Of a stretch of 64,000 bases of DNA, positions 1,622 to 44,649 are shown piece after piece (position 1 is the stretch's first letter; each line of letters begins with the position of its first letter). Made by a program: the position numbers and the translations under genes. The stretch comes from Bathymodiolus japonicus methanotrophic gill symbiont (GTDB lineage Bacteria; Pseudomonadota; Gammaproteobacteria; Methylococcales; Methylomonadaceae): assembly GCF_019721995.1 (NCBI RefSeq), contig NZ_BLYC01000005.1, forward strand, positions 1 to 64,000, written 5' to 3'. The notes under the pieces were generated by a model. The model was not told the origin of the DNA. It ran no database searches and saw only the letters and a list, made by a program, of their open reading frames with translations.

Positions 1622-2841
1622 ATGCTTAAAGACCTACCGCTCTCTGAACATATTCACCAACACTGCAATGCAGGCGCGCCATGCTACCTCACGAAATTCC
1701 GGGACTCCTGTCGCCGTAATTCGTTCACCTACGCAGCGAATAGGAGATGCTCCAGCCGCCCTGCGTCCGCCACAGACTGAGTACAAAGCAGCTCAGTCAT
1801 GGCTACCACAAATGGCTCTACGGCTATTCGGGATAAAATTTTAGCCTCCCTCGCGCGCTATCGCGCACTTCGGATTGGCAAATTTCCCTGCGCCTTCTGG
1901 AGACTATCAGCCCGTCCGGGGCTGACAGCGAAAGTATGGAACGTGCCCTGTTAGTAGAGCGTCATCCTTTGTGGGCTCGTTCATGCCCAGAGTTGAAGGA
2001 TATCGACTTTATTCGCCTTGGGTTATTACGCTGTATCAGTGTAGTCGATAGTGGTCGCCATTTCCTCCAAACCAATGAACAGATTTATGGCCAGCTGCTT
2101 CCCCACTCAACGTATTTTAAATCACTGAAGTCGCATAGACGAACAAGTATGCTTGAGGCATTTGAACAGCAGGGCTATCATCTTCACGCTGAAACACTGC
2201 TATCGCAAGGCATTGATTATCTTAAAGCATTCCCGGAACTTGACGAATACACCATAGAAGCAGCGGATGGACATTTTATTGATCATGCCTGCCATACTGA
2301 AAAAAACAGCAAGGGGAAAGTTTATGCGGCCGGGGGGATTTACGCGTTGAATCTCAGAAGTGGGTTGCTCAGATTTCTTTGTCTGGTGACAAACGGAACT
2401 CAGAGGCATCAAGAAATACCTGTGTTACGAGATCATATTGAAAAGCAAAACAAGGGAAATAACAGCTCTCAGAAACATCTCTATGTCTACGATAAAGCCG
2501 TCACCGACTTTGTCTGGTGGGATCGGCAGAAACGACATGCTAATTACATGATTTCAATGCTAAAAGAAAATTCAATTGCGACTCTGGTTGAGTCTATCCC
2601 TTTTGACTCCCAGCATGAGATCAATACAGGAGTTGAAGCATACAGTGTGTACGAAAACAAGGGCATCAAATTTAACGTGGTGGATTACCGTGATCCAGAA
2701 ACCGGAAAACTTCACCGGTTTGTGACAACCTTGCCAATGACTATTAACCCTGGAACCATTGCCATGCTGTATTTCAAGCGATGGACGATTGAAAAGACAT
2801 TCAATAACACTAAAAGTAATTTCAAGGAAACTAAAGCTTGA
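1622..2841 (+). pseudogene. IS4-family transposase (ISa copy 1), disrupted
   Basis: The start ATG and first 16 codons lie at 1622-1670. The reading frame is then cut by an A-type element and resumes at 1931 (SMERALLVERHP...). It contains the DDE-type IS4 motif YFKRWTIEKTFNNTK near its end and is lost again at a second element at 2850. This copy lacks the 2-bp AT insertion that frameshifts copies 2 and 3, so it was probably the healthiest reading frame before the insertions. Confidence 0.85.
1671..1930 (+). repeat. CAGCG-element type A (260 bp)
   Basis: Begins CAGGCGCGCC and ends GGGCTGACAGCG. The empty site is seen in other ISa copies (caatg|aaagt), so insertion was exact with no target duplication. 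The 3' flank is AAAG. Internal hairpins include GACTGAG/CTCAGTC and CAGCCC/GGGCTG. Confidence 0.9.
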
Positions 2842-2849
2842 TCTTCCAA

Positions 2850-3109
2850 CGCTGTCAGCCCCGGACGGGCTGATAGTCTCCAGAAGGCGCAGGGAAATTT
2901 GCCAATCCGAAGTGCGCGATAGCGCGCGAGGGAGGCTAAAATTTTATCCCGAATAGCCGTAGAGCCATTTGTGGTAGCCATGACTGAGCTGCTTTGTGCT
3001 CAGTCTGTGGCGGACGCAGGGCGGCTGGAGCATCTCCTATTCGCTGCGTAGGTGAACGAATTACGGCGACAGGAGTCCCGGAATTTCGTGAGGTAGCATG
3101 GCGCGCCTG
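2850..3109 (-). repeat. CAGCG-element type A (260 bp)
   Basis: Inverted copy in ISa. Compared with the intact ISa sequence at 23460-23670, about 180 bp of transposase is missing at this site, so insertion was accompanied or followed by a deletion. The 3' flank, read on the minus strand, is TTGG. Confidence 0.88.
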
Positions 3110-3345
3110 TATTTTTCTAGGCAAGAATATCTCGTATCAGCTCGTATACCATTCGGGCAGTTCAAAACGCAATAATAACAGGAATGTCTTTACAGTGCTT
3201 TATGAACTCTCTTGTGGCAAAGTTAGTTTCACGGCCTCAATTGATAGGGGAACACTGATGCTATCCATAGCCATGTTATAATAGCCGTACCGATAAAACG
3301 ACTTTGCAAATCAATAAACGCGTATTCCTGCGCAAACAAGCTGCT

Positions 3346-3780
3346 ATGAAATTCTGGGAAACCAAAACATTATCAGAAATGACAACTGCCGAATGGGAAT
3401 CCCTATGTGATGGCTGCGCTAAATGTTGTCTAAATAAACTAGAGGATGAAGCCAGTGGGCAGATATATTTTACCAGTGTCGTCTGCGATTTAATCAACCT
3501 GGATACCTGTCGCTGCACCCGTTACTCAGAACGCACAACACGAGTGCCAGGCTGCATTGATTTAAAGCAGCATGACTTCTCTGAATACACCTGGCTCCCG
3601 GACACTTGCGCGTACCGCCTGCTAAGCGATGGCAAGCCGTTACCTAACTGGCACCCATTAATTTCAAGCACACCGGAAAGCGTTAAAGAAGCAGGTGTTT
3701 CTATTAGCAGCTACGCAATAAAAGAGTCCCAGGTTGATGACCTGGAAGAACATATTATTGAATGGCTGCCAATCGCATAA
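3346..3780 (+). CDS. ycgN: YcgN / UPF0260 family cysteine-cluster protein
   Basis: A 144-residue protein of the UPF0260 family, members of which carry an N-terminal CxxCxxCC cluster thought to bind zinc or iron-sulphur. Here the cluster is CDGCAKCC near residues 23-30, followed by further conserved cysteines (VVCDLINLDTCRC) and the family motif PDTCAYRL. The chosen ATG gives the usual MKFWETK start; a TTG 42 bp upstream is less likely. ISa copy 1 ends 85 bp upstream, and a TATAAT-like box lies around 3285, just inside host DNA. The function of the family is not established. Confidence 0.9.
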   Translation: MKFWETKTLSEMTTAEWESLCDGCAKCCLNKLEDEASGQIYFTSVVCDLINLDTCRCTRYSERTTRVPGCIDLKQHDFSEYTWLPDTCAYRLLSDGKPLPNWHPLISSTPESVKEAGVSISSYAIKESQVDDLEEHIIEWLPIA

Positions 3781-3891
3781 ACTTTTTGCTTATGCTATTC
3801 TTGTATTACATATTGAACAAGTGCTGCACTAGATCACTATTTAATTAATGCTCTCTGAATCTAAATAAACATCGAGTAATACGGCTATACG

Positions 3892-4752
3892 TTACATATA
3901 TTCCAGCACCAAACCCACAAAAATTGTAAAACCAAACCAGTTACTATTTAAAAAGGCTTTAAAGCAATCGGCCTTATCACGGCAAAAAATCAGTTTTTGC
4001 TGATAGATAAAAAAGCCACTGGCACAGAATAAGGCGACATAGTATATCCAGGATAGACCCTGCATACTGCCAACTAGTATCAATAATAGCAGGATGATTA
4101 TTTGTAATCCTGCCATGATTTCACGATCTTTATTGCCAAATAATATCGCTGTAGACTTAACCCCAATTTTCAGATCATCTTCTTTATCCACCATGGCGTA
4201 CATGGTGTCATAGACCAGCGCCCAGAGCACTACCGCCAGATACAGCACCCATGCAACTGCTGGAATCTCATTGCTTTGCGCGGCAAACGACATAGGTACC
4301 GCCCAGCCAAAGGCGATGCCAAGATAGGCCTGAGGCAGCTGGGTATAGCGCTTCATAAACGGATAACTCGCCGCCAGAAATGCGCCACCAAAAGACAGCA
4401 TGATAGTGTAAGGATTAAGCAATAACACCAATGTAAAGGCAGTTAAGCAAAGTAGCGCAAACACGACCAGCGCTTCTTTAGGCCTAACTTTACCGGCAGC
4501 AATCGGCCGTAATTTTGTGCGCTCTACATGTGGGTCAAAGTCCCGGTCAGCATAATCATTAATCACACAGCCTGCGGCACGCATTAATACCACACCGCAG
4601 CAAATAACTGTCAATACCAGCATATCCGGCTGACCTGAACTTGCTATCCATAGCGCCCATAAAGCAGGCCATAATAAAATCAATATCCCAATCGGCTTAT
4701 CAAAGCGCGCTAATATCCAGTATTGTTGCGCCCTGTCGATGATTTTTTCCAT
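3892..4752 (-). CDS. ubiA: 4-hydroxybenzoate octaprenyltransferase
   Basis: Inner-membrane prenyltransferase of ubiquinone synthesis, joining a polyprenyl chain to 4-hydroxybenzoate. The 286-residue product has about eight membrane segments and both Asp-rich Mg-diphosphate motifs: NDYADRDFD in the first half and DTMYAMVDKEDD in the second. The following RPIAAGKV is typical of bacterial UbiA. The start at 4752 (MEKIIDRAQQYW) matches the family better than the ATG 33 bp upstream, which adds a poorly conserved leader. It is convergent with ycgN. Confidence 0.95.
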   Translation of the reverse strand: MEKIIDRAQQYWILARFDKPIGILILLWPALWALWIASSGQPDMLVLTVICCGVVLMRAAGCVINDYADRDFDPHVERTKLRPIAAGKVRPKEALVVFALLCLTAFTLVLLLNPYTIMLSFGGAFLAASYPFMKRYTQLPQAYLGIAFGWAVPMSFAAQSNEIPAVAWVLYLAVVLWALVYDTMYAMVDKEDDLKIGVKSTAILFGNKDREIMAGLQIIILLLLILVGSMQGLSWIYYVALFCASGFFIYQQKLIFCRDKADCFKAFLNSNWFGFTIFVGLVLEYM

Positions 4753-4930
4753 ATTCACAGCAATATCTATTCTTAATAAATTCAATTACTTAACCATATT
4801 AACCTAATAAATTACATTAAATTTTAATAAACTATTTGGGAAGTCAATTAAAGTGTACTATTATTAATTTTAACCTTTATATTTTATAAGCTTATCACAA
4901 CTATTTAATGTGAAATTTCTACCTTAACAA

Positions 4931-5210
4931 CAGGCGCGCCATGCTACCTCACGAAATTCCGGGACTCCTGTCGCCATAATTCGTTCACCTACGCAGCGGA
5001 TGGGAGATGCCCTGAATGCCCTGCGTCCGCAACGACTACGCACAAAAGCCGCTTCGTCATTACTACCTCACTGGCTGGACGGCTATTCGGAATGCAATTC
5101 TTGCTCCTCTCGCGTGCTGCTAGCACACGTCGAATCAGCGAATTGCCCTGTCGCCTATCAGGGACTAAAAATCACCACTTCGCTAAGCTCCGTTTCCATG
5201 ATTTTCAGCG
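4931..5210 (+). repeat. CAGCG-element type B (280 bp)
   Basis: Begins CAGGCGCGCC and ends ATGATTTTCAGCG. The 3' flank is AATG, whose ATG is the apparent start codon of the small gene at 5212. The 5' flank is ...TTAACAA; there is no target duplication. Confidence 0.9.
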
Positions 5211-5211
5211 A

Positions 5212-5454
5212 ATGCACTCAGGCGACACAATTATCTTAAAAGATAATGCTGTCTATGCTGCTAAACAAGAAAATATCAAGTCATCGCTGACCAAGAGGGC
5301 TCTTGCCCACCTCAACCTGTGCGTTAGCAAAACCGATTTATCACTACGCAACATCTCAAACCGTGAACTAATCCGCGGCGTAGCCATTATTGATAGTGCA
5401 GACGAATATCAAGAATATCTTGCCCAAAACATTGCCATGCGATCGTGTAATTAA
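5212..5454 (+). CDS. Hypothetical 80-residue protein, 5' region cut by element B
   Basis: An 80-codon frame (MHSGDTIILKDNAV...) ending at a TAA. I do not recognise the family. The sequence is soluble-looking, has no signal peptide or membrane segment, and contains one internal cysteine (LNLCVSK). A type B element abuts the start codon exactly, so any original promoter and ribosome-binding site are now 280 bp away. The gene may equally be the tail of a longer frame that began upstream of the element, but the region 4800-4930 shows stops. It could be a relic. Confidence 0.45.
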   Translation: MHSGDTIILKDNAVYAAKQENIKSSLTKRALAHLNLCVSKTDLSLRNISNRELIRGVAIIDSADEYQEYLAQNIAMRSCN

Positions 5455-5486
5455 TCTAAAGCCTGATGAGAATGACCGTGTCAGAG

Positions 5487-8728: not shown

Positions 8729-10553
8729 CTCGATGTTCAAGTTTTTGATATTGAGAAGGTAAAATCAGGTATTCTGAGGTTGTTGTAATTTTATCGGTGT
8801 AAGCCCATGTTAATGAATGCCCCAGCCACCTTTATCCAAAGCTATATTGACGATTTAAATGATGCGCTCAATCAGCTAAAACCCGGAGCCGCTTTGACAC
8901 GGATTCAAGCCGCTTGGTTGGGCACTTGTTTAACGGGCATACTGCTAATGAACTCTGTTTGCTGGGCTAAGTTTGAGCGAGCAAGCCTTGGAGATTGCAA
9001 AGTAGCCGCATTATCCTGGGTGTTTCGTAAAGCAAGTATACCCTGGGACTGGTTGCTACGGGTGAGTGTGGTCTTAATTTTAAAACGTTATGGCATTACT
9101 GAAGGTGTGTTGGCCTTTGATGAATCAGACCGAGCACGATCTAAGTCTACAAAACGTATTTATTCGGGGAGTCGCTATTTTTGCGAAAGCTTGTTTTGGG
9201 CATCCCAGCCCAAGCAAGCAGCAAAAACTTAACGCGACCACTTATGCCTCCGGCGGCCCCGATTCGTCCTCGTCACCTTGTCCCGACCCAACAAGGGGTC
9301 GGAACATAGGCTCCAAATGACTTGACGCCGTGTCGGATGGCCTTTTATTTTGTCTCCACCTTCGCTAACGCTCAGACTCCGACAAAACAACGGCCCTACG
9401 GCTATCGCGGACTAAAAATCTTCACTTCGCTAAAGCTCCGTTTCCAGGATTTTCAGCGAAGGTTTACAAGCAGAAACACAAAGGCTCCGACGGGTATGTT
9501 AATGGACAAACGATAGTATTATTGCTGCTAGTTACCTCATCCATTACAGTGCCTGTCGGTTTTTTCTTTTATATGCCGGATCCAGCCTTAAAGCAGTGGG
9601 ATAAAGAAGATAAACGGTTGAAAAAGAGCGGTATAGCAAAAAAAGATCGGCCTATTAAGCCTGAACGTGACAGTGCCTACCCGACCAAAACAGAGATTGC
9701 ATTAGGCTTATTAAAAGAGTTTAAAGTTGCGCATAGCCTGATTAAAATTAAAGGCGTACTGGCTGATGCGCTTTATGGTGAAAAAGCCTTTATGGACGAA
9801 GCCGCTAAAGAATCTGGAGGCTCGCAGGTGATTAGCCAATTACGTAAAAACCAAAATATTGAATATAGAGGTAGAATAAGGTCAGTCGAGAGCTACTTTA
9901 ATTCGATTAACAAAGGCATTGATCAGATAATACGTGTACGTGGCGGCAAAGAGATTAAAGTGACTGTCAGCAGTGCACGATTAAAGGTGAGTTCTCACAG
10001 TAAAAAACGCTTTGTCATTGCCTTAAAATATGACGGTGAAAACGACTATCGCTATTTAGTGGCGACAGACCTGACTTGGCGCACACAAGATATTATTCAA
10101 GCCTATACGTTGAGATGGCTGATTGAGGTTTTCTTTGAGGACTGGAAGCTTTATGAAGGATGGGGGCGTGAGGCCAAACAATTAGATGAAGAGGGATCAA
10201 GCCGTGGCCTGATTCTGAGTCTTTTGTTTGACCATTGCCTTCTCCTTCACCCAGAGCAAATAGCCCGCATTGAAAGCAAACTACCTGCGTATACCCTAGG
10301 AAGCTTACAGCGCAAGTCTCAAATGGATGTACTGCTTGAGTTCATCACGTCATTGCTAGAGTTTCCAGATCCTGGTGATAAGCTGAAAGAGTTAGGTGAA
10401 TTAATAAAGGATGTGTTTCAACTGATGCCATCAGGAAAACATATGATTGGCAGAGATTTAGGGCGCTTAGGGCCAACAGCATCATTAAAGTATTGTTCTG
10501 CTGGGGAAGGTAAGAGTTTGATGGCAATGGGATGGAAAAACTTGAACATCGAG
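8729..10553 (+). mobile_element. ISb copy 1: IS4-like insertion sequence, dead
   Basis: The ends are perfect inverted repeats CTCGATGTTCAAGTTTTT / AAAAACTTGAACATCGAG, flanked by the 5-bp duplication TTAAA (8724-8728 and 10554-10558). The transposase has the IS4-type motif YTLRWLIEVFFEDWK. A type C element (9164-9458) interrupts it, and the 3' end of the gene has lost a T relative to other copies, so its stop is missed. Native size is about 1530 bp. Confidence 0.9.
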
Positions 10554-17084: not shown

Positions 17085-17365
17085 CAGGCGCGCCATGCTA
17101 CCTCACGAAATTCCGGGACTCCTGTCGCCATAGTTCGTTCACCTACGCAGCGGATGGGAGATGCCCTGAACGCCCTGCGTCCGCAACGACTACGCACAAA
17201 AGCAGCTTCGTCATTACTACCTCACTGGCTGGACGGCTTATTCGGAATGCAATTCTTGCTCCTCTCGCGTGCTGCTAGCACACGTCGAATCAGCGAATTG
17301 CCCTGTCGCCTATCAGGGACTAAAAATCACCACTTCGCTAAGCTCCGTTTCCATGATTTTCAGCG
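17085..17365 (+). repeat. CAGCG-element type B (281 bp)
   Basis: Inserted eight bases before the end of the VWA gene's stop codon; excision gives QQQTTLPR and a TAG at 17075-17077. The 3' flank is AATG. One extra base relative to other B copies lies in the central region (ggacggcttattcgg). Confidence 0.88.
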
Positions 17366-18242: not shown

Positions 18243-18848
18243 CAGGCGCGCCATGCTACCTCACGAAATTCTGGGACTCCTGTCACCAACATTCATTCGC
18301 CTACGCAGCGAATGGGAGATGCCCTGGTCGCCCTGCGTCCGTCTCAACTACGCACAAAACCCTGCTCAGTTAAGACTACCTCAAATGGCTGGACGACTAT
18401 TCGGAATGCAATTCTTGCCTCCCTCGCGCGCTACTAGCGCACTTCGGATCAGCGAATTGCCCTGTCGCCTACCAGGGACTAAAAATCATCACTCCGCTTA
18501 GGCTCCGTTTCCCTGATTTTAACCCATCTTCGTCACTTTCATCTTTCTAAGCCATTGATTCATCGGTTTAAGCGATTTTTTGTCGAAAAATTCTCTTTAA
18601 AATCAATGGTGTTTTTTTTGAAAGTTTTGTAGTGCCATTTATATTATTTTTGTCGATAAATTCATTGACTTTTGTCAAAAAAATCATCATTATTTGAGTG
18701 TAATTTACATGCGACAAAAATACTCTAAAAAATCCAACGTTTTATACAAAAACACAAAATCTGTAGTGCCAACTGGCTACTTTTTAAAATTTCAACCAAT
18801 TGATTTATAACAACTACATCATCAATAGTGACGAAGATGGGTTAAGCG
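18243..18848 (+). repeat. CAGCG-element type D, carrying a 319-bp MITE
   Basis: Begins CAGGCGCGCC and ends ATTTTAAGCG. It differs from B in its middle (GGTCGCCCTGCGTCCG, CCTCCCTCGCGCGCTAC). A TIR-bearing MITE occupies 18523-18841. With both removed, the host reads FLQAATTILGNQTVLAP in frame. The 3' flank is GTTG. Native length is 283 bp. Confidence 0.87.
18523..18841. mobile_element. MITE-F (319 bp), copy 1
   Basis: The ends are inverted repeats CCCATCTTCGTCACT / AGTGACGAAGATGGG, flanked by TTAA (18519-18522 and 18842-18845). It has no coding capacity and a very AT-rich interior. The same 319-bp length and TTAR-type duplication recur at 54962-55280. A YTAR target and 4-bp duplication resemble the IS5 group, but no parent element is in the window. 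Confidence 0.9.
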
Positions 18849-19765: not shown

Positions 19766-20340
19766 CAGGCGCGCCATGCTACCTCACGAAATTCCGGGAC
19801 TCCTGTCGCCATAATTCGTTCACCTACGCAGCGGATGGGAGATGCCCTGAACGCCCTGCGTCCGCCGCTGAAAATCCTGGAAACGGAGCTTTAGCGAAGT
19901 GAAGATTTTTAGTCCGCGATAGCCGTAGGGCCGTTATTTTGTCGGAGTCTGAGCGTTAGCGAAGGTGGAGACAAAATAAAAGGCCATCCGACACGGCGTC
20001 AAGTCATTTGGAGCCTATGTTCCGACCCCTTGTTGGGTCGGGACGAGGTGACGAGGACGAATCGGGGCCGCCGGAGGCATAAGTGGTCGCGTTAAGTTTT
20101 TGCTGCTTGCTTGGGCTGGGATGCCCAAAACAAGCTTTCGCAAAAATAGCGACTCCCCGAAACGACTACGCACAAAAGACGCTTCGTCATTACTACCTCA
20201 CTGGCTGGACGGCTATTCGGAATGCAATTCTTGCTCCTCTCGCGTGCTACTAGCACACGTCGAATCAGCGAATTGCCCTGTCGCCTATCAGGGACTAAAA
20301 ATCACCACTTCGCTAAGCTCCGTTTCCATGATTTTCAGCG
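19766..20340 (+). repeat. CAGCG-element type B, carrying an inverted type C
   Basis: The outer B is 280 bp once the 295-bp type C (19866-20160) is removed. It sits in the VWA gene; excision joins LDPTL to SPLEYGEVEQG in frame. The 3' flank of B is AGTG. Confidence 0.88.
19866..20160 (-). repeat. CAGCG-element type C (295 bp), inside a type B
   Basis: Inverted copy inserted in ctgcgtccgc|aacgactacg of the B element with no duplication. Read on the minus strand it starts TCGGGGAGTCGC, ends TTTTCAGCG and has the 3' flank GCGG. Confidence 0.88.
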
Positions 20341-20452: not shown

Positions 20453-20712
20453 CAGGCGCGCCATGCTACCTCACGAAATTTCGGGACTCCTGTCGCCGTA
20501 ATTCGTTCACCTACGCAGCGAATAGGAGATGCTCCAGCTGCCCTGCGTCCGCCACAGACTGAGCACAAAGCAGCTCAGTCATGGCTACCTCAAATGGCTC
20601 TACGGCTATTCGGGATAAAATTTTAGCCTCCCTCGCGCGCTATCGCGCACTTCGGATTGGCAAATTTCCCTGCGCCTTCTGGAGACTATCAGCCCTTCCG
20701 GGGCTGACAGCG
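20453..20712 (+). repeat. CAGCG-element type A (260 bp)
   Basis: Inserted in the VWA gene between FQVSFSPTMEAQ and PDQLTITTNDP; one host base appears lost at the junction, so the frame shifts here. The 3' flank is ATTG. Confidence 0.88.
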
Positions 20713-22347: not shown

Positions 22348-22642
22348 TCGGGGAGTCGCTATTTTTGCGAAAGCTTGTTTTGGGCATCCCAGCCCAAGCA
22401 AGCAGCAAAAACTTAACGCGACCACTTATGCCTCCGGCGGCCCCGATTCGTCCTCGTCACCTCGTCCCGACCCAACAAGGGGTCGGAACATAGGCTCCAA
22501 ATGACTTGACGCCGTGTCGGATGGCCTTTTATTTTGTCTCCACCTTCGCTAACGCTCAGACTCCGACAAAATAACGGCCCTACGGCTATCGAGGACTAAA
22601 AATCATCACTTCGCTTAGGCTCCGTTTCCCTGATTTTCAGCG
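22348..22642 (+). repeat. CAGCG-element type C (295 bp)
   Basis: In the ISa transposase at cagcaa|ggggaaag, exact by comparison with copies 1 and 3; the 3' flank is GGGG. Confidence 0.9.
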
Positions 22643-22782: not shown

Positions 22783-23077
22783 GCGGGGAGTCGCTATTTT
22801 TGCGAAAGCTTGTTTTGGGCATCCCAGCCCAAGCAAGCAGCAAAAACTTAACGCGACCACTTATGCCTCCGGCGGCCCCGATTCGTCCTCGTCACCTCGT
22901 CCCGACCCAACAAGGGGTCGGAACATAGGCTCCAAATGACTTGACGCCGTGTCGGATGGCCTTTTATTTTGTCTCCACCTTCGCTAACGCTCAGACTCCG
23001 ACAAAATAACGGCCCTACGGCTATCGCGGACTAAAAATCATCACTTCGCTTAGGCTCCGTTTCCCTGATTTTCAGCG
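22783..23077 (+). repeat. CAGCG-element type C (295 bp)
   Basis: In the ISa transposase at aaaaca|agggaaat. The first element base is G here where other copies have T; the 3' flank is AGGG. It lies only 140 bp from the preceding C copy in the same orientation. Confidence 0.9.
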
Positions 23078-23729
23078 AGGGAAATAACAGCTCTCAGAAA
23101 CATCTCTATGTCTACGATAAAGCCGTCACCGACTTTGTCTGGTGGGATCGGCAGAAACGACATGCTAATTACATGATTTCAATGCTAAAAGAAAATTCAA
23201 TTGCGACTCTGGTTGAGTCTATCCCTTTTGACTCCCGCCATGAGATCAATACAGGGGTTGAAGCATACAGTGTGTACGAAAACAAGGGCATCAAATTTAA
23301 CGTGGTGGATTACCGTGATCCAGAAACCGGAAAACTTCACCGGTTTGTGACAACCTTGCCAATGACTATTAACCCTTGAACCATTGCCATGCTGTATTTC
23401 AAGCGATGGACGATTGAAAAGACATTCAATAACACTAAAAGTAATTTCAAGGAAACTAAAGCTTGGTCTTCCAATACCCGCTCACTTGAAAATCAAATGC
23501 GCCTGACTGCAATGAGCTATAATTTAATGTGCGTGTTTGAAGAGATTTCAAAAACACAACAGCCAGAATTGATTCATCCATCGGATAAAAAATATAGCGA
23601 GGCTCTGGAGATAAGGCAGCAACAGGCTCAAAAACGAGATCGTTTTGTGAATCCATTATTTTTCCAGGCAAGAATATCTCGTATCAGCTCGTATACCATT
23701 CGGGCAGTTCAAAACGCAATAATAACAGG

Positions 23730-24284
23730 TCGGGGAGTCGCTATTTTTGCGAAAGCTTGTTTTGGGCATCCCAGCCCAAGCAAGCAGCAAAAACTTAACG
23801 CGACCACTTATGCCTCCGGCGGCCCCGATTCGTCCTCGTCACCTCGTCCCGACCCAACAAGGGGTCGGAACATAGGCTCCAAATGACTTCAGGCGCGCCA
23901 TGCTACCTCACGAAATTCCGGGACTCCTGTCGCCGTAATTCGTTCACCTACGCAGCGAATAGGAGATGCTCCAGCCGCCCTGCGTCCGCCACAGACTGAG
24001 CACAAAGCAGCTCAGTCATGGCTACCACAAATGGCTCTACGGCTATTCGGGATAAAATTTTAGCCTCCCTCGCGCGCTATCGCGCACTTCGGATTGGCAA
24101 ATTTCCCTGCGCCTTCTGGAGACTATCAGCCCGTCCGGGGCTGACAGCGGACGCCGTGTCGGATGGCCTTTTATTTTGTCTCCACCTTCGCTAACGCTCA
24201 GACTCCGACAAAACAACGACCCTACGGCTATCGCGGACTAAAAATCATCACTTCGCTTAGGCTACGTTTCCCTGATTTTCAGCG
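23730..24284 (+). repeat. CAGCG-element type C split by a type A
   Basis: The left half (23730-23889) and right half (24150-24284) rejoin to 295 bp when the A element is removed. The ISa empty site is aacagg|aatgtc; the 3' flank is AATG. Confidence 0.9.
23890..24149 (+). repeat. CAGCG-element type A (260 bp), inside a type C
   Basis: Inserted at atgactt|gacgccg of type C, matching uninterrupted C copies with no base gained or lost; the 3' flank is GACG. Confidence 0.9.
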
Positions 24285-24390: not shown

Positions 24391-24670
24391 CAGGCGCGCC
24401 ATGCTACCTCACGAGATTCCGGGACTCCTGTCGCCATAATTCGTTCACCTACGCAGCGGATGGGAGATGCCCTGAACGCCCTGCGTCCGCAACGACTACG
24501 CACAAAAGCCGCTTCGTCATTACTAACTCACTGGCTGGACGGCTATTCGGAATGCAATTCTTGCTCCTCTCGCGTGCTGCTAGCACACGTCGGATCAGCG
24601 AATTGCCCTGTCGCCTATCAGGGACTAAGAATCACCACTTCGCTAAGCTCCGTTTCCATGATTTTCAGCG
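24391..24670 (+). repeat. CAGCG-element type B (280 bp)
   Basis: In the VWA gene; excision joins ADFEDPIQ to SSYAFIGTDG in frame. The 3' flank is ACTG. Confidence 0.9.
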
Positions 24671-24777: not shown

Positions 24778-25057
24778 CAGGCGCGCCATGCTACCTCACG
24801 AAATTCCGGGACTCCTGTCGCCATAATTCGTTCACCTACGCAGCGGATGGGAGATGCCCTGAACGCCCTGCGTCCGCAACGACTACGCACAAAAGCCGCT
24901 TCGTCATTACTACCTCACTGGCTGGACGGCTATTCGGAATGCAATTCTTGCTCCTCTCGCGTGCTGCTAGCACACGTCGAATCAGCGAATTGCCCTGTCG
25001 CCTATCAGGGACTAAAAATCACCACTTCGCTAAGCTCCGTTTCCATGATTTTCAGCG
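24778..25057 (+). repeat. CAGCG-element type B (280 bp)
   Basis: In the VWA gene; excision joins NTAAMASH to GDYALSRHDAG in frame. The 3' flank is TGAG. It lies 107 bp from the previous B copy in the same orientation. Confidence 0.9.
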
Positions 25058-25210
25058 TGAGAGGCCATCGCTGCAGTATTGAATATCACTTGTGTATTGA
25101 TCGACCCAACCACTGGACTCAATGCCAGCACCTTGCCTGCGTGTAATAAGACAATCAATACAACAAATGATATTAAGCGATTTTGAAATAAAATAACGAT
25201 TGATTTCATG

Positions 25211-25504: not shown

Positions 25505-25784
25505 CAGGCGCGCCATGCTACCTCACGAAATTCTGGGACTCCTGTCGCCATAATTCGTTCACCTACGCAGCGGATGGGAGATGCCCTGAACGCCCTGCGT
25601 CCGCAACGACTACGCACAAAAGCCGCTTCGTCATTACTACCTCACTGGCTGGACGGCTATTCGGAATGCAATTCTTGCTCCTCTCGCGTGCTGCTAGCAC
25701 ACGTCGAATCAGCGAATTGCCCTGTCGCCTATCAGGGGCTAAAAATCACCACTTCGCTAAGCTCCGTTTCCATGATTTTCAGCG
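25505..25784 (+). repeat. CAGCG-element type B (280 bp)
   Basis: An intergenic copy between the VWA gene and the tRNA cluster; the 3' flank is TACG. It shows the B variant GGGGCT in place of GGGACT near its 3' end, also present in the hybrid copy at 39879. Confidence 0.9.
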
Positions 25785-27778: not shown

Positions 27779-28037
27779 CGCTGTCAGCCCCGGACGGGCT
27801 GATAGTCTCCAGAAGGCGCAGGGAAATTTGCCAATCCGAAGTGCGCGATAGCGCGCGAGGGAGGCTAAAATTTTATCCCGAATAGCCGTAGAGCCATTTG
27901 TGGTAGCCATGACTGAGCTGCTTTGTGCTCAGTCTGTGGCGGACGCAGGGCGGCTGGAGCATCTCCTATTCGCTGCGTAGGTGAACGAATTACGGCGACA
28001 GGAGTCCCGGAATTTCGTGAGGTAGCATGGCGCGCCT
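27779..28037 (-). repeat. CAGCG-element type A (259-260 bp)
   Basis: An inverted copy in the Sel1 gene, in the sense orientation of that gene. The terminal C of other A copies is T here or belongs to the target. The 3' flank on the minus strand is GCGG. Confidence 0.88.
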
Positions 28038-28069
28038 AATATTTTTATAATTAAAAGCCACACTACCCT

Positions 28070-28364
28070 CGCTGAAAATCAGGGAAACGTAGCCTAAGCG
28101 AAGTGATGATTTTTAGTCCGCGATAGCCGTAGGGCCGTTGTTTTGTCGGAGTCTGAGCGTTAGCGAAGGTGGAGACAAAATAAAAGGCCATCCGACACGG
28201 CGTCAAGTCATTTGGAGCCTATGTTCCGACCCCTTGTTGGGTCGGGACGAGGTGACGAGGACGAATCGGGGCCGCCGGAGGCATAAGTGGTCGCGTTAAG
28301 TTTTTGCTGCTTGCTTGGGCTGGGATGCCCAAAACAAGCTTTCGCAAAAATAGCGACTCCCCGA
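28070..28364 (-). repeat. CAGCG-element type C (295 bp)
   Basis: In the Sel1 gene at gcgtcaa|agggtag (minus strand); the 3' flank is AGGG. Only 32 bp of host DNA separates it from the neighbouring type A. Confidence 0.9.
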
Positions 28365-31862: not shown

Positions 31863-32122
31863 CAGGCGCGCCATGCTACCTCACGAAATTCCGGGACTCC
31901 TGTCGCCGTAATTCGTTCACCTACGCAGCGAATAGGAGATGCTCCAGCCGCCCTGCGTCCGCCACAGACTGAGCACAAAGCAGCTCAGTCATGGCTACCA
32001 CAAATGGCTCTACGGCTATTCGGGATAAAATTTTAGCCTCCCTCGCGCGCTATCGCGCACTTCGGATTGGCAAATTTCCCTGCGCCTTCTGGAGACTATC
32101 AGCCCGTCCGGGGCTGACAGCG
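31863..32122 (+). repeat. CAGCG-element type A (260 bp)
   Basis: In the non-coding leader of ISa copy 3 at caaaaag|atggaaat, exact by comparison with 44061-44090; the 3' flank is ATGG. Confidence 0.9.
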
Positions 32123-34389: not shown

Positions 34390-34850
34390 TTAAGAGAGTA
34401 GTGACATTAATAACTTCATTAGCAAGGCGGTTAATGAAATACTGGCAACCACCAACCAGAACCCTTTTTGCCACCACCAATGCTTTTCGCGTTGAGCGCA
34501 TTCTGCATACTTTTATTCAAACTCGTCAGGCGCGCCATGCTACCTCACGAAATTCCGGGACTCCTGTCGCCGTAATTCGTTCACCTACGCAGCGAATAGG
34601 AGATGCTCCAGCCGCCCTGCGTCCGCCACAGACTGAGCACAAAGCAGCTCAGTCATGGCTACCACAAATGGCTCTACGGCTATTCGGGATAAAATTTTAG
34701 CCTCCCTCGCGCGCTATCGCGCACTTCGGATTGGCAAATTTCCCTGCGCCTTCTGGAGACTATCAGCCCGTCCGGGGCTGACAGCGCATGCCATAGCTGC
34801 TGCTGGGTCAGCATCTTGTTTAATTCTAATTTTATATTTTGATCTGTCAT
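34390..34850 (-). pseudogene. Small membrane protein gene, interrupted by element A
   Basis: The start at 34850 (MTDQNIKLELNKMLTQQQLWH) runs into a type A element. Excision gives HDEFE, an in-frame TAA, then KYAECAQREKHWWWQKGFW and one membrane segment (LVVASISLTALLMKLLMSLL). The intact form would be about 66 residues with a single C-terminal membrane anchor. The extra stop suggests it was already decaying. Family not recognised. Confidence 0.55.
34527..34786 (+). repeat. CAGCG-element type A (260 bp)
   Basis: Inserted in the small membrane protein gene at aactcgt|catgcc; the 3' flank is CATG. Confidence 0.9.
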
Positions 34851-38308: not shown

Positions 38309-38388
38309 ATTCGCATGCGTGATGCCGTTTGCTTAATTTTCACCATGAAGGGCATGAAAATACTGAGAGCCAGATTATCTTCAATTTA

Positions 38389-38557: not shown

Positions 38558-38576
38558 TTATCATTTGCCTATCAAT

Positions 38577-38621: not shown

Positions 38622-38658
38622 AAGGGAGCTGGAAATAAATAATTGTCCAATATTGGAC

Positions 38659-38783: not shown

Positions 38784-39277
38784 TGCCAGCTTAGTTATAA
38801 CATTCCGCCTGCAATTTGACATTTAATCATCAGTGTTCCCCTATCAATTGAGGCCGTGAAACTAACCTCGCCACAAGAGAGCTCATAAAGCACTGTAAAG
38901 ACATTCCTGTTATTATTGCGTTTTGAACTGCTCGAATGGTATACGAGCTGATACGAGATATTCTTGCCTGGAAAAATAATGGATTCACAAAACGATCTCG
39001 TTTTTGGGTCTGTTGCTGCCTTATCTCCAGAGCCTCGCTATATTTTTTATCCGATGGATGAATCAATTCTGGCTGTTGTGTTTTTGAAATCTCTTCAAAC
39101 ACGCGCATTAAATTATAGCTCATTGCAGTCAGGCGCATTTGATTTTCAAGTGAGCGGGTATTGGAAGACCAAGCTTTAGTTTCCTTGAAATTACTTTTAC
39201 TCGATGTTCAAGTTTTTGATATTGAGAAGGTAAAATCAGGTATTCTGAGGTTGTTGTAATTTTATCGGTGTAAGCCC

Positions 39278-40586
39278 ATGTTAATGAATGCCCCAGCCAC
39301 CTTTATCCAAAGCTATATTGACGATTTAAATGATGCGCTCAATCAGCTAAAACCCGGAGCCGCTTTGACACGGATTCAAGCCGCTTGGTTGGGCACTTGT
39401 TTAACGGGCATACTGCTAATGAACTCTGTTTGCTGGGCTAAGTTTGAGCGAGCAAGCCTTGGAGATTGCAAAGTAGCCGCATTATCCTGGGTGCTTCGTA
39501 AAGCAAGTATACCCTGGGACTGTTTGCTACGGGTGAGTGTGGTCTTAATTTTAAAACGTTATGGCATTACTGAAAGTGTGTTGGCCTTTGATGAATCAGA
39601 CCGAGCACGATCTAAGTCTACAAAACGTATTTATAAAGTTTACAAGCAGAAACACAAAGGCTCCGGCGGGTATGTTAATGGACAAACGATAGTATTATTG
39701 CTGCTAGTTACCTCATCCATTACAGTGCCTGTCGGTTTTTTCTTTTATATGCCGGATCCAGCCTTAAAGCAGTGGGATAAAGAAGATAAACGGTTGAAAA
39801 AGAGCGGTATAGCAAAAAAAGATCGGCCTATTAAGCCTGAACGTGACAGTGCCTACCCGACCAAAACAGAGATTGCATCAGGCGCGCCATGCTACCTCAC
39901 GAAATTCTGGGACTCCTGTCGCCATAATTCGTTCACCTACGCAGCGGATGGGAGATGCCCTGAACGCCCTGCGTCCGCAACGACTACGCACAAAAGCCGC
40001 TTCGTCATTACTACCTCACTGGCTGGACGGCTATTCGGAATGCAATTCTTGCTCCTCTCGCGTGCTGCTAGCACACGTCGAATCAGCGAACTGCCCTGTC
40101 GCCTATCAGGGGCTGACAGCGGAGGCTCGCAGGTGATTAGCCAATTACGTAAAAACCAAAATATTGAATATAGAGGTAGAATAAGGTCAGTCGAGAGCTA
40201 CTTTAATTCGATTAACAAAGGCATTGATCAGATAATACGTGTACGTGGCGGCAAAGAGATTAAAGTGAATGTCAGCAGTGCACGATTAAAGGTGAGTTCT
40301 CACAGTAAAAAACGCTTTGTCATTGCCTTAAAATATGACGGTGAAAACTACTATCGCTATTTAGTGGCGACAGACCTGACTTGGCGCACACAATATATTA
40401 TTCAAGCCTATACGTTGAGATGGCTGATTGAGGTTTTCTTTGAGGACTGGAAGCTTTATGAAGGATGGGGGCGTGAGGCCAAACAATTAGATGAAGAGGG
40501 ATCAAGCCGTGGCCTGATTCTGAGTCTTTTGTTTGACCATTGCCTTCTCCTTCACACAGAGCAAATAGCCCGCATTGAAAGCAAAC
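39278..40586 (+). pseudogene. ISb transposase N-terminal and central part, disrupted
   Basis: Reads MLMNAPATFIQSYIDDL through KPERDSAYPTKTEIAS, then through the inserted hybrid element, and resumes with GGSQVISQLRKNQ. About 120 bp of transposase is missing at the element. The frame with motif YTLRWLIEVFFEDWK runs to the IS66-type insertion at 40587; the C-terminal codons continue at 43304-43530. Confidence 0.85.
39879..40121 (+). repeat. CAGCG-element, B/A hybrid (243 bp)
   Basis: The first part matches type B through CCTGTCGCCTATCAGG; the 3' end is the type A GGGGCTGACAGCG. The 3' flank is GAGG. About 120 bp of ISb is missing between its flanks. Confidence 0.85.
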
Positions 40587-40621
40587 GTAACTACTCAGCG
40601 AAGCTGAGTAGTTCAATGAAA

Positions 40622-42326
40622 TTATAAAGCAAATTCAGGTAACTTTCCCTCAAAGACCAAGGTCATTGCCTGAGTTGCACTTAGACCTTGTTTACGGCAC
40701 GTTGATAAATACCCTCTGACACGACAAAATATCTCTGCACCCTTGGTACTACGAAAGCAGCCGGATATTTTCTGTTGAACCTTGGTCATCCGAATCGAAT
40801 TTTCTGCGGCATTATTGGTAAATGGCACCCAGGTATTTGTCATGAAGCGCAAGACATCCTCTTCATAATTAATCAGCCTTTCCAGTAAGTTTCTAGCTTT
40901 ACTGCGTTTTATTCGCTCCCGTTTTACTTCTTTAGGCTTATCGGGTGGTGGGCATTCGATCTCCGCTTTGCCAAGTAATTCTCTGTATTGTACCTTCCAT
41001 TTTTCTGCTTCTTTATGTAGTAGCATGCCACCTGCTTCATTGACGGCATCATTCATTTTTTCAAGTAGTCGTTTCATTTCAAGCGCCCACTCCTGTTTAT
41101 CCTGCTCCTAGGCGCGCGTTAATTCCCTCAAATGATGTGCATTACAAAGCGAATGAGTACAATCATATTTATAGTAGGGCTTCCAATGATCATGACATAA
41201 AATCCCATGAAAATGGGGTAAAATACCAATGTCATTCATTGCCTCTGTGCCACGTTTGGCATGGGGAAAGAAGTGTGTCCACTGAACATTGGAGGCCCCA
41301 TGTAGCCAATGGCGCTTACCATTAATATTAATGCCTGTTTCATCCGCATGAATGCACGCTGATTCGACTAAGTGTTCTTTACTGATAGTTTCAAACCCAG
41401 CCAACTTCTCATCGGGGAGTCGCTATTTTTGCGAAAGCTTGTTTTGGGCATCCCAGCCCAAGCAAGCAGCAAAAACTTAACGCGACCACTTATGCCTCCG
41501 GCGGCCCCGATTCGTCCTCGTCACCTCGTCCCGACCCAACAAGGGGTCGGAACATAGGCTCCAAATGACTTGACGCCGTGTCGGATGGCCTTTTATTTTG
41601 TCTCCACCTTCGCTAACGCTCAGACTCCGACAAAATAACGGCCCTACGGCTATCGCGGACTAAAAATCATCACTTCGCTTAGGCTCCGTTTCCCTGATTT
41701 TCAGCGTAGGCCAGTTCATTGAAATTATAGATAGAGCCTTCACTAATCGGCATACCTAATTGATCAGCGAAATACTCCTGTATTCGGTTGTAGGGCAATA
41801 ACTGATATTGCGAAAGATAAACCACATGGGCTTTTATCCCATTACCATATTGCGCAGCCTTAGTAACCTCATCTGGAAAAGGAGCGATAAAACACTGACC
41901 TTTTCCATTTATCAACCGTTGCGCCTGGTATTCTGTCACTACCCTTGAGATATCAATATCGAATACCTGGCGTGTTTCAAAGCCATCTGCCGTGTATCGC
42001 CCTTTTGGCAAGGTACGGCGATCAATGGTAATGATCTCGATTTCATCCGGGTCATCTATTTTTTGAAGTGTCGTGCCGACATGCGATTTTTGTCCGCCAG
42101 AAGGCTTATCTGATTTTTTTCGATTCCCTTTTTTACGGTTGGGATCACTTGCAGGTGGTTTACTGCTATTTTTGCTGTTCAGTGTCACTCCATTGAGTAA
42201 TACCGTGACTAATAATAGAATCACTTCCAGTGCTGATTTTAGCGCAGGCGATATATCACGCTCAGTTTCAAGTAACTGTTTGGCATGACTGATTGCGGAA
42301 TCAACATCGATGAAGTCTATTTTCAA
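40622..42326 (-). pseudogene. IS66-family transposase, one stop and one insertion
   Basis: The start at 42326 (MKIDFIDVDSAISHAKQLL) runs through a basic NSKNSSKPPASDPNRKK region to FNELAY. There a type C element is inserted; excision continues EKLAGFETISKEHLVESACIHADETG in frame. Catalytic-region motifs are HADETG, CHDHWKPYY and TNNAAENSIRMTKVQQKISGC. An in-frame TAG lies after LRELTRA near 41110. Without C the frame is 470 codons including the terminal stop. No tnpA/tnpB partners are present, as in single-gene IS66 relatives. Confidence 0.88.
41412..41706 (+). repeat. CAGCG-element type C (295 bp)
   Basis: In the IS66-type transposase, antisense to it; the 3' flank is TAGG. Confidence 0.9.
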
Positions 42327-42553
42327 AGGGTAACCTGTATTGCTTTAAGGACGGGCTTATTATCTCATGGGTTTTAAATCCCGAATTTTCCTTGTTCTAA
42401 GCGATTGTAAGGCGAATAAAAAAGCTCTTCGAGGTCGTAGATGTTTAAGGGGACATTTTGTGATGACTATAGCGATAGAAGCAATAAAGCGTGGATTAAT
42501 CGACTGTTGGGCAGTTTACTAAAAATCACAAAAACCAGACTAAAACCCTGTCA

Positions 42554-42705
42554 CTCGATGTTCAAGTTTTCAGCTATAACTGGGCTAAGAAAAGTAAATT
42601 TTTACGACTTTGTTTTATAAGTGATTGATTTACAATGATGTTGATGCTTTCTTTGTCAGTAAAATTATCAATAAAATCAATCAGTTAAAAAACTTGAACA
42701 TCGAG
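42554..42705. mobile_element. MITE-b, copy 1 (152 bp, ISb-derived)
   Basis: It has the ISb inverted repeats CTCGATGTTCAAGTTTT at both ends and the 5-bp duplication TGTCA (42549-42553 and 42706-42710), but an unrelated non-coding interior. It would be mobilised in trans by the ISb transposase. It is inserted in the upstream part of the IS66-type element. Confidence 0.92.
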
Positions 42706-42728
42706 TGTCAAGAACTTTTTTAATTATT

Positions 42729-43279
42729 CAGGCGCGCCATGCTACCTCACAACATTCTGGGACTCCTGTCACCAACATTCATTCGCCTACGCAGCGAATG
42801 GGAGATGCCCTGGTCGCCCTGCGTCCGTCTCAACTACTCAACTACGCACAAAACCCTGCTCAGTTAAGTCTACCTCAACAGGCGCGCCATGCTACCTCAC
42901 GAAATTCCGGGACTCCTGTCGCCGTAATTCGTTCACCTACGCAGCGAATAGGAGATGCTCCAGCCGCCCTGCGTCCGCCACAGACTGAGCACAAAGCAGC
43001 TCAGTCATGGCTACCTCAAATGGCTCTACGGCTATTCGGGATAAAATTTTAGCCTCCCTCGCGCGCTATCGCGCACTTCGGATTGGCAAATTTCCCTGCG
43101 CCTTCTGGAGACTATCAGCCCGTCCGGGGCTGACAGCGATGGCTGGACGGCTATTCGGAATGCAATTCTTGCCTCCCTCGCGCGCTACTAGCGCACTTCG
43201 GATCAGCGAATTGCCCTGTCGCCTACCAGAGACTAAAAATCATCACTCCGCTTAGGCTCCGTTTCCCTGATTTTAAGCG
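42729..43279 (+). repeat. CAGCG-element type D split by a type A
   Basis: The left part is 42729-42879 and the right part 43139-43279. It carries a 9-bp internal duplication (caactactcaactac) absent from the copy at 18243. The 3' flank is TACG. Confidence 0.87.
42880..43138 (+). repeat. CAGCG-element type A, inside a type D
   Basis: Inserted at acctcaa|atggctgg of type D with no duplication; the 3' flank is ATGG. It is the innermost layer of the nest. Confidence 0.9.
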
Positions 43280-44163
43280 TACGCTGAGTAGTTACAAGCA
43301 AACTACCTGCGTATACCGTAGGAAGCTTACAGCGCAAGTCTCAAATGGATGTACTGCTTGAGTTCATCACGTCATTGCTAGAGTTTCCAGATCCTGGTGA
43401 TAAGCTGAAAGAGTTAGGTGAATTAATAAAGGATGTGTTTCAACTGATGCCATCAGGAAAACATATGATTGGCAGAGATTTAGGGCGCTTAGGGCCAACA
43501 GCATCATTAAAGTATTGTTCTGCTGGGTGAAGGTAAGAGTTTGATGGCAATGGGATGGAAAAACTTGAACATCGAGTTTAAGATAATCAATGCCTTGCGA
43601 TAGCAGTGTTTCAGCGTGAAGATGATAGCTCTGCTGTTCAAATGCCTCAAGCATACTTGTTCGTCTATGCGACTTCAGTGATTTAAAATACGTTGAGTGG
43701 GGAAGCAGCTGGCCATAAATCTGTTCATTGGTTTGGAGGAAATGGCGACCACTATCGACTACACTGATACAGCGTAATAACCCAAGGCGAATAAAGTCGA
43801 TATCCTTCAGCTCTGGGCATGAACGAGCCCACAAAGGATGACGCTCTGCTAACAGGGCACGTTCCATACTTTCATTGCAGTGTTGGTGAATATGTTCAGA
43901 GAGCGGTAGGTCTTTAAGCATGGGTGATATCCGTTTATGAGGTGATTAAAACGGAAATTTTTAGAAAAATTCTTTCGGCAATTGCAAGCTTTATTTGAAA
44001 TTATTTGTTGTTTTTTTACGGTGCCTACAGAGTGTCTATTTGCTGTTATAAGTGATTAAAATCAAAAAGATGGAAATATTCGAGTGGTGCTACCTTCAGG
44101 TAGGTTATAGGCTGCTTTGTTTAGGTACTTCTTCTTTCAATGGGAACACTGATACATTTAATA

Positions 44164-44315
44164 CTCGATGTTCAAGTTTTTTAACCGATTGATTTTATTG
44201 ATAATTTTACTGACAAAGAAAGCATCAACATCATTGTAAATCAATCACTTATAAAACAAAGCCGGAAAAATTTACTTTTCTTAGCCCAGTTATAGCTGAA
44301 AACTTGAACATCGAG
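44164..44315. mobile_element. MITE-b, copy 2 (152 bp)
   Basis: The same length and interior as copy 1 in opposite orientation; it forms the left end of the composite unit. The right flank TAAAA is ISa sequence. Confidence 0.9.
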
Positions 44316-44389
44316 TAAAAGAAAATTCAATTGCGACTCTGGTTGAGTCTATCCCTTTTGACTCCCGCCATGAGATCAATACAGGGGTT

Positions 44390-44649
44390 CAGGCGCGCCA
44401 TGCTACCTCACGAAATTCCGGGACTCCTGTCGCCGTAATTCGTTCACCTACGCAGCGAATAGGAGATGCTCCAGCCGCCCTGCGTCCGCCACAGACTGAG
44501 CACAAAGCAGCTCAGTCATGGCTACCTCAAATGGCTCTACGGCTATTCGGGATAAAATTTTAGCCTCCCTCGCGCGCTATCGCGCACTTCGGATTGGCAA
44601 ATTTCCCTGCGCCTTCTGGAGACTATCAGCCCGTCCGGGGCTGACAGCG
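44390..44649 (+). repeat. CAGCG-element type A (260 bp)
   Basis: In the ISa fragment at caggggtt|gaagcata, exact by comparison with 23249; the 3' flank is GAAG. Confidence 0.9.

What the first reader, a model, noticed from the sequence alone, without database searches (positions are those of the whole stretch)
1671..44649. A 25-copy family of short structured elements that insert without duplicating the target
Seen directly: nine A (259-260 bp), six B (280-281 bp), one B/A hybrid, seven C (295 bp) and two D copies. Subtypes A, B and D start CAGGCGCGCC; C starts TCGGGGAGTCGC; all end in (C/A)AGCG just after a hairpin. For at least nine copies an uninterrupted version of the same site exists in the window, and the comparison shows neither duplication nor, usually, loss of bases. 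There are no terminal inverted repeats and no conserved coding frame, but many hairpins. DDE elements normally make duplications and need matched inverted ends. This pattern is closer to elements moved by HUH/Y1 enzymes (IS200/IS605-derived, palindrome-associated elements). The mobilising enzyme is inferred, not seen.
Basis: partly seen in the sequence, partly recalled or inferred. Interest (0 to 1): 0.93.

Follow-up and report, generated by a model that had tools for sequence, protein, structure and literature searches.

The report
Folded gene-less mobile elements
A methanotroph related to deep-sea mussel symbionts carries more than 800 copies of a short gene-less DNA element that folds into an intricate shape and slips into the chromosome, almost always without a trace, beside a single preferred base on one strand of the replication fork, and the enzyme that moves it is not known.

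Summary
The window carries 25 gene-less elements (243-295 bp), and the motif CAGGCGCGCC occurs 830 times in this 4.97-Mb genome. Of 215 complete copies with flanks, 95 have an uninterrupted counterpart that aligns gap-free at 95% identity or more.

New here. (1) Target choice is one base: element|NNNG in 209 of 215 copies (2.1 bits), nothing on the other side. (2) The strand reading CGCTG... is the folded one: 40 pairs in 23 relatives, 97.7% paired, 25 covarying. (3) That strand lies on the lagging-strand template in 178 of 215 copies, whichever way the interrupted frame runs. (4) On that strand the left flank (CNNN|) and the right terminus (...CNNN|) share one cleavage pattern. (5) Relatives occur in 41 of 101 family genomes and in other gammaproteobacterial families; a genome of another family shows the same rules (47 of 48 NNNG).

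This supports single-stranded-DNA cut-and-join like IS200/IS605 or REP elements. But the hairpin abuts the cut, no guide was recognised, the whole body is conserved, and no enzyme or longer parent was found.

The parts
1671..1930 (+). A element in the start of a DDE transposase gene; flanks AATG | AAAG
   Evidence: empty site at 43922-43823
2850..3109 (-). A element; 3' flank TTGG
4931..5210 (+). B element; 3' flank AATG
9164..9458 (+). C element; 3' flank AAGG; empty site at 45619-45520
17085..17365 (+). B element; 3' flank AATG
18243..18525 (+). D element with altered 3' end (TAACCC|ATCT)
19766..20340 (+). B element split by the C element at 19866-20160; 3' flank AGTG
19866..20160 (-). C element nested in B; 3' flank GCGG
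20453..20712 (+). A element; 3' flank ATTG
22348..22642 (+). C element; 3' flank GGGG
22783..23077 (+). C element with first triplet GCG; 3' flank AGGG; empty site at 31192-31093
23730..24284 (+). C element split by the A element at 23890-24149; 3' flank AATG
23890..24149 (+). A element nested in C; 3' flank GACG
24391..24670 (+). B element; 3' flank ACTG
24778..25057 (+). B element; 3' flank TGAG
25505..25784 (+). B element; 3' flank TACG
27779..28038 (-). A element, first base T; 3' flank GCGG
28070..28364 (-). C element; 3' flank AGGG
31863..32122 (+). A element; 3' flank ATGG; empty site at 44020-44119
34527..34786 (+). A element; 3' flank CATG
39879..40121 (+). B/A hybrid (B positions 1-236, A-like 3' end), 243 bp; 3' flank GAGG
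41412..41706 (+). C element; 3' flank TAGG
42729..43279 (+). D element split by the A element at 42879-43138; 3' flank TACG
42879..43138 (+). A element nested in D; 3' flank ATGG
44390..44649 (+). A element in a copy of the same transposase sequence as 1936-2841; 3' flank GAAG; empty site at 23210-23309

Best explanation
These are non-autonomous mobile elements that move as folded single strands. The strand reading CGCTG...(C)NNN, here called rev, folds into three domains. An enzyme supplied in trans cuts three bases after a C at both ends of that strand and joins the piece into a new CNNN| site on the single-stranded lagging-strand template; replication then makes it double-stranded. This gives scarless insertion, target preference on one side only, and orientation tied to the fork. 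Shown by the sequences: the scarless joins, the one-base target, the folded strand, the lagging-template bias, the matching CNNN pattern at the other end of C-type copies. Inferred: an excised (probably circular) single strand, and an HUH-type (Y1-like) enzyme as the strand transferase. The enzyme itself was not identified.
For: Empty sites: an alignment across the junction for 109 of 215 copies, 97 without a gap; gap-free at >=95% identity for 95 of 215. Target: G at +4 in 209 of 215, 2.11 bits over 210 distinct sites; +1 is C in 4 and +5 is G in 10 of 215; none of 20 positions on the other side exceeds 0.06 bits. Lagging-strand template: 178 of 215 complete copies (p = 3e-23), 222 of 269 matches when pieces are counted; the same in sense (32 to 8) and antisense (18 to 6) insertions. 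In G162, a complete genome of another family: 47 of 48 NNNG, 37 of 48 in the expected orientation (p = 2e-4). Terminal triplet of C copies varies (7 triplets in 86 copies) before a GGGAGTCGC that is the same in all 86, so the right end on rev is ...CNNN| like the target; triplets mix with internal haplotypes. Fold on rev: 97.7% of 903 cells paired, 25 of 40 pairs changed on both sides, 0 of 500 shuffles; G.U 121 against A.C 15 on rev, 27 against 46 on the best fwd structure. Precedent: IS608 and ISDra2 use the lagging-strand template, and TnpA(REP) cleaves at CT or CA (passages of PMC6006769 and PMC8266576). Family genomes without a Y1 match: 0 of 9 carry the element, against 41 of 92 with one. 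GT[AG]G, the foot of REP sequences, occurs 3 to 8 times on rev and never on fwd in the five consensus sequences; in A, B and D one GTAG stands just before the palindrome GGCGCGCC at the right end.
Against: No enzyme with these ends was found. In IS200/IS605 a guide tetranucleotide sits 5' of the hairpin foot (PMC6006769); here the left hairpin starts one base from the cut, and I recognised no guide there. The GTAG near the right end is missing in C and E and in several relatives. A one-base target is looser than any IS200/IS605 target I recall. The interior, not only the ends, is conserved, which simple end-recognition does not need. One copy (L030:4344) has a 6-bp flanking duplication and one (L041:4554) lost a base. 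About one copy in six lies in the other orientation. In A and B copies the first triplet hardly varies, so the CNNN reading of that end rests on C-type copies.
Confidence: 0.5

Rival explanations
1. A structured RNA (rev sense) is copied by a reverse transcriptase supplied in trans at the fork, priming on nascent lagging-strand ends: a bacterial SINE-like element.
For: The rev strand shows an RNA-like fold with two invariant G.U pairs. The orientation also fits extension of nascent lagging strands. G000 and G006 share a retron-like reverse transcriptase.
Against: Truncation is not one-sided: 12 breaks at the 3' and 11 at the 5' end are not explained by a neighbouring element or a stretch edge, though some of these are subtype switches (E, hybrids) rather than breaks; 48 of 48 matches in 400 kb of G162 are complete within five bases. 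That reverse transcriptase was seen only in G000 and G006 among the 12 loci read; in G004 and G008, which also have copies, only two loci each were read out of 4 and 13 matches. A fixed ...CNNN| end has no reason in this scheme.
Confidence: 0.2
2. A tyrosine recombinase of the integron type moves folded single strands of the element and integrates them into loose sites, as it does with cassettes.
For: Integron integrase is over its cut-off in 11 of 16 element-bearing genomes. It acts on folded single strands (established knowledge, recalled).
Against: None of the five consensus sequences has an RYYYAAC...GTTRRRY pair on one strand, and no such pair lies in the 12 kb around the G000 remnant. 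G000, with the most copies, has as its best match only a 112-aa integrase remnant; G017, G044, G109 and G116 are also below the cut-off. There was no control set of element-free genomes.
Confidence: 0.08
3. The elements are DDE-transposon derivatives (MITEs) whose duplications were lost.
For: Three of ten window proteins scanned match DDE transposase families, and elements lie in copies of such genes.
Against: No duplications beyond chance, no terminal inverted repeats, gap-free empty sites, strand bias along replication.
Confidence: 0.02
4. An unknown class of enzyme, or a host replication/repair protein, recognises the whole folded body and inserts it.
For: Whole-body conservation, hairpin abutting the cut, one-base target, no parent seen in 864 kb of G000 and 400 kb of G162.
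Against: Negative evidence only; most of the own genome was not read, and Y1 genes are present in most hosts. Two shortened copies that keep both ends (105 and 173 bp) sit at rule-abiding sites, which speaks against a need for the whole body unless they were shortened after insertion.
Confidence: 0.2

Closest known systems
IS200/IS605 insertion sequences and their non-autonomous derivatives (PATEs)
   Same: Scarless insertion, no inverted ends, hairpin near an end, target conserved only beside one end, same cleavage pattern at target and other terminus, lagging-strand template.
   Different: One conserved target base instead of four or five (number recalled), hairpin one base from the cut, no guide recognised, long conserved interior, no transposase or parent found.
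REP / BIME / REPIN elements with TnpA(REP) (RAYT)
   Same: Many dispersed gene-less copies, folded strand, loose cleavage specificity around a C (CT or CA in passages of PMC8266576), GT[AG]G on the folded strand only.
   Different: 260-310 nt with three domains instead of 21-65 nt hairpins (PMC6006769), left hairpin foot is CGCTG/TAGTC, exact insertion sites inside frames, not found flanking a RAYT gene.
Integron gene cassettes at attG sites
   Same: Folded single strand, replication-linked orientation, loose target (recalled).
   Different: No attC pair in the consensus sequences, integrase decayed in the host with most copies.
Group II introns and other retroelements
   Same: Structured RNA-like body, insertion into the lagging-strand template (recalled).
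   Different: No Rfam match, no multi-base target match, no one-sided truncation.

Membership tests
IS200/IS605-derived element | Insertion without target duplication or loss | tested here: met
   97 of 109 alignments gap-free, 95 of 215 copies at >=95% identity; duplications at chance level
IS200/IS605-derived element | Conserved target tetra- or pentanucleotide flanking the left end | tested here: not met
   Only one base (C at -4 on rev) is conserved, with weak exclusions at -1 and -5
IS200/IS605-derived element | Hairpin with a guide tetranucleotide 5' of its foot, apart from the cleavage site | tested here: not met
   At the left end the hairpin starts at base 2 in 23 of 23 aligned elements, leaving no room; right end judged by eye only
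IS200/IS605-derived element | Preference for the lagging-strand template | tested here: met
   178 of 215 complete copies; 37 of 48 in G162; GC skew taken as guide to fork direction
IS200/IS605-derived element | Same ends as an IS with a Y1 transposase gene | tested here: not met
   20 stretches with Y1 genes from six genomes of the genus read; repeated IS units have other ends; a search for the end motif near Y1 genes gave 19 hits, in element copies or fragments of them
[quoted passage not shown]
   Not at the left hairpin. GT[AG]G is on rev only in all five consensus sequences, and before the right-end palindrome in A, B and D, but not in C, E and several relatives
REP/RAYT element | Copies flank a RAYT gene | tested here: inconclusive
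   30 Y1 loci in 11 genomes show no flanking element, only three 23-24 bp matches; the G162 RAYT gene is interrupted by one
MITE of a DDE transposon | Terminal inverted repeats and target duplication | tested here: not met
Integron cassette | attC site (RYYYAAC...GTTRRRY) | tested here: not met
   No such pair on one strand in any of five consensus sequences
IS91-like element | Y2 transposase in the host | tested here: not met
   No match in G000 and 8 more of 16 element-bearing genomes
Known RNA family | Match to an Rfam model | tested here: not met
   Only three tRNAs over gathering scores in the window; in 1500-26000 one weak microRNA-model match below its cut-off at 25079-25177, outside the elements

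The most novel reading that the evidence does not exclude
A new class of bacterial mobile element in which the folded nucleic acid is the machine: a 260-310 nt gene-less strand, conserved over its whole length like a ribozyme or guide RNA, that enters the lagging-strand template beside a single base with the help of an enzyme of a kind not yet linked to transposition.
Probability: 0.3. Interest if true: 0.92.

Novelty: new variant of a known kind. Interest (0 to 1): 0.78.

Why it matters
It is a large mobile-DNA family, with more than 800 counted copies in one genome and relatives across families of Gammaproteobacteria, that my paper searches did not find described. Its almost base-free target choice and scarless insertion would be useful in a genome tool. 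It also makes a clear open question testable: which enzyme moves a folded single strand whose whole body, not only its ends, is conserved.

Tried and rejected
Parent with the same ends: none seen among the 269 matches in 864 kb of G000; the broken ends I looked at are nested elements, stretch edges, subtype switches or chimeras with other sequence. 48 matches in 400 kb of G162 are all short. Y1 genes: 20 stretches of G000, G004, G005, G006, G008, G013 read; IS200 units repeated in G006 and G008 have other ends. RAYT as common factor: P0001-like genes are in 66 of 101 family genomes, not diagnostic. Reverse transcriptases: 12 loci read. IS91 enzyme: no match in 9 of 16. Integron integrase: see rivals. 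Viral and plasmid collections: no phage record for the C query; four plasmid records from Methylomonas (two), Methylobacter and Methyloprofundus; seven stretches on four viral contigs, not followed further except one ORF list. Considered and dropped: a cut directly after the C with the target triplet carried along (contradicted by the empty sites); primase start sites (no CTG pattern in the flanks); pairing of the target C with a base after the hairpin (position not constant, by eye).
Full report
What is there. The window holds 25 gene-less elements of four related subtypes and one hybrid: nine A (260 bp), six B (280-281), one B/A hybrid (243), seven C (295) and two D. The start motif CAGGCGCGCC occurs 17 times in the window against 0.06 expected, and 830 times in the window's own genome, G000, with none for the reversed control. 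With up to two mismatches in 20 bases it occurs 835 times in G000, 94 in G006, 16 in G008, 11 in G004, 4 in G013 and once each in G003, G009 and G016; 8 of 41 genomes searched have it, all of one genus. In 864 kb of G000 (the window plus forty 20-kb stretches of contigs C1 to C3) there are 269 non-overlapping matches: 99 to C, 83 to B, 70 to A and 17 to D. Pieces of split copies count apart; merging six split pairs gives 263. By extrapolation the genome has about 1,500. A fifth type, E, joins a C-like 5' half to an A-like 3' end and was counted among the C matches. Copies are alike: mean pairwise identity 99.7% (63 A), 97.9% (57 B), 98.3% (86 C).

Host. Element positions in G006 contigs agree with those in records of the Bathymodiolus platifrons methanotrophic gill symbiont (for instance two places in contig 199). 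G008:C2 has the length and the element position of a Methyloprofundus plasmid record, AP023241.1. G000 is of the same genus and unnamed. Insertion sequences make up over 20% of each of two Methyloprofundus symbiont genomes in PMC8788690 (passages seen). The passages I saw there and in PMC10652631 do not describe these elements.

Insertion is scarless. I took the flanks of 215 complete copies (at most four bases missing at either end) and looked for uninterrupted versions in the same DNA. An alignment across the junction was found for 109; 97 of those have no gap. A few of the 97 are weak or paralogous, and with identity of at least 95% the number is 95 of 215. Flank identity of any length from 2 to 12 bases is at the level of shuffled flanks. 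Among the 12 gapped cases, one shows a 6-bp flanking duplication (L030:4344) and one a lost base (L041:4554); one has a 4-base difference three bases beyond the junction (L041:18132); the others I judged by eye as weak, paralogous or rearranged. Ends show no inverted repeat (2 to 6 of 20 bases) and the longest stop-free runs are 57 to 93 codons in differing frames.

The target is a single base. Over 210 distinct sites position +4 carries 2.11 bits, +1 0.31 and +5 0.17; no position on the 5' side exceeds 0.06. So choice lies on one side only. Of the six exceptions, two are D copies whose 3' end is itself altered.

The other end follows the same rule. The first three bases of C copies vary (TCG 50, TTG 18, GCG 11, ACG 3, CGG 2, ATG 1, AGC 1 of 86) while the following GGGAGTCGC is the same in all 86. 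The triplets are mixed among internal haplotypes, as recombination between copies could also bring about. Empty sites show that the triplet belongs to the element. On the other strand (rev) this reads: target DCNNH|CGCTG...C-NNN|, so both cuts fall three bases after a C. A and B copies nearly always have CAG before the G, which fits too but shows little variation.

The rev strand is the folded one. RNA folding energies are 22 to 26 kcal/mol lower for rev than for fwd in all five subtypes. In 24 elements from several genera the rev consensus structure has 121 G.U and 15 A.C cells; the best fwd structure has 27 and 46. On a 23-sequence alignment including one element from another family (G162), RNAalifold gives 40 pairs. 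Counted on that alignment, 97.7% of 903 cells pair, 25 pairs change on both sides, none of 500 shuffles reaches any of the five measures, and sliding the partner by 1 to 3 columns drops pairing to 39-45%. The structure came from this same alignment, which inflates the percentage; the double changes are the better evidence. The left-end hairpin has two invariant G.U pairs (23 of 23). There are three domains: the left hairpin, a branched middle, and a right-end stem. Whether the molecule is RNA or single-stranded DNA cannot be told from this.

Orientation follows replication. Taking GC skew as the guide to fork direction, rev lies on the lagging-strand template in 178 of 215 complete copies (p = 3e-23): A 54 of 63, B 49 of 57, C 69 of 86, D 6 of 9. 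Over all 269 matches it is 222: on C1 and C2 (positive skew) 179 on - and 41 on +, on C3 and C5 (negative skew) 43 on + and 6 on -. Among 95 copies with a gap-free empty site, the bias is the same in those inserted sense (32 to 8) and antisense (18 to 6) to the longest stop-free frame they interrupt; frame orientation itself is only weakly biased (40 to 24, p = 0.06), and 31 lie outside stop-free frames of at least 100 codons.

It is a wide family. The B query matches 41 of 101 genomes of the host's family (own included), in 17 of 29 genera; outside the genus the most conserved part is mostly the last 60 bases. Of 32 3' ends read in the loci of that search, all 32 are followed by NNNG; 30 end AGCG, one AGCA and one AGCC. 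A C query matches 13 of 369 genomes of the class (own included), in 10 of 272 genera, several only in the interior at 69-79% identity. G162, a complete genome of another family, gave 48 matches in 400 kb, all complete within five bases, 47 with NNNG, seven kinds of first triplet, and 37 of 48 in the orientation expected from GC skew. Four plasmid records carry the element, one with 10 places.

Who moves it. The best fit is a strand-transfer enzyme working on single-stranded DNA. IS608 and ISDra2 target the lagging-strand template, and IS200/IS605 enzymes use equivalent tetranucleotides at the target and at the right terminus (passages of PMC6006769). REP transposases cleave at CT or CA (passages of PMC8266576). 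The nine family genomes without a Y1 match have no element, against 41 of 92 with one, but most of the nine are small genomes. Eleven element-bearing genomes looked at have best Y1 E-values of 1.6e-14 or weaker, which I take as REP-type. Among the 20 of 22 Y1 matches of G000 that were listed, the gene in this window (60389-61057, protein P0001) is the only one that spans the domain in a full-length frame; C2:313065 has a stop near its start. P0001 matches the REP transposase model below its cut-off (65.2 against 80 bits), and its flanking repeats (GGGGACG...) resemble those reported for subclass 2.1. It has no element ends. In G162 a RAYT gene is frameshifted and interrupted by an element. So no Y1 gene is tied to the elements, and I keep the mechanism at 0.5. 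One lead towards REP systems came late: GT[AG]G, the foot of REP sequences, occurs 3 to 8 times on rev and never on fwd in the five consensus sequences. These are homologous sequences and rev is the G-richer strand, so this is weak.

Against retrotransposition: ends not explained by nesting or stretch edges are balanced, 12 at the 3' and 11 at the 5' end, some of them subtype switches, and G162 matches are complete. Against the integron: no attC pair in the consensus sequences and a decayed integrase in G000, though 11 of 16 element-bearing genomes have the integrase and I had no control set.

What is not in print. Searches of a paper library that lacks most subscription journals listed no paper whose title or abstract start names such elements; I read only passages of four papers. 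Rfam has no matching model.

Verdict. The added facts are the one-base target, the folded strand, the replication bias, the matching cut at the other end and the spread beyond methanotrophs. It works like an IS200/IS605 or REP element; it fails several tests of being one.

Noticed in passing
window 60389-61057 (-): A REP-type Y1 transposase gene (222 aa) with inverted repeats around GGGGACGYTACCC on both sides; 63% identical to one in G017.
   Followed up: partly
L021:12950-13330 and L044:16600-17000: Two B copies whose 3' end is replaced at the same point by the same other sequence, suggesting a chimeric element that moved or was copied.
   Followed up: no
L017:7255-7360 and L062:2777-2949: Internally shortened elements of about 105 and 173 bp that keep both ends; both sites obey the NNNG rule, so little of the interior may be needed for insertion, unless they were shortened afterwards.
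   Followed up: partly
L134 (G000:C85) and L135 (G006:C231): A retron-like reverse transcriptase shared by the two genomes with most copies among those searched in the genus, with a C element nearby in each case but in different arrangements.
   Followed up: partly
G075:C1: 38 scored IS200-type Y1 matches in one genome, 20 of them with an in-frame TGA at the same score, so that a stop-bearing copy seems to have spread.
   Followed up: no
window 18243-18525 and L018:3894: Two D copies end TAACCC followed by the same sequence (ATCTTCGTCAC) instead of AAGCG, probably from another insertion at the end.
   Followed up: no
window 1-64000: Many long duplicated stretches, in part DDE transposase genes, that serve as landing sites and give the empty-site comparisons.
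   Followed up: partly
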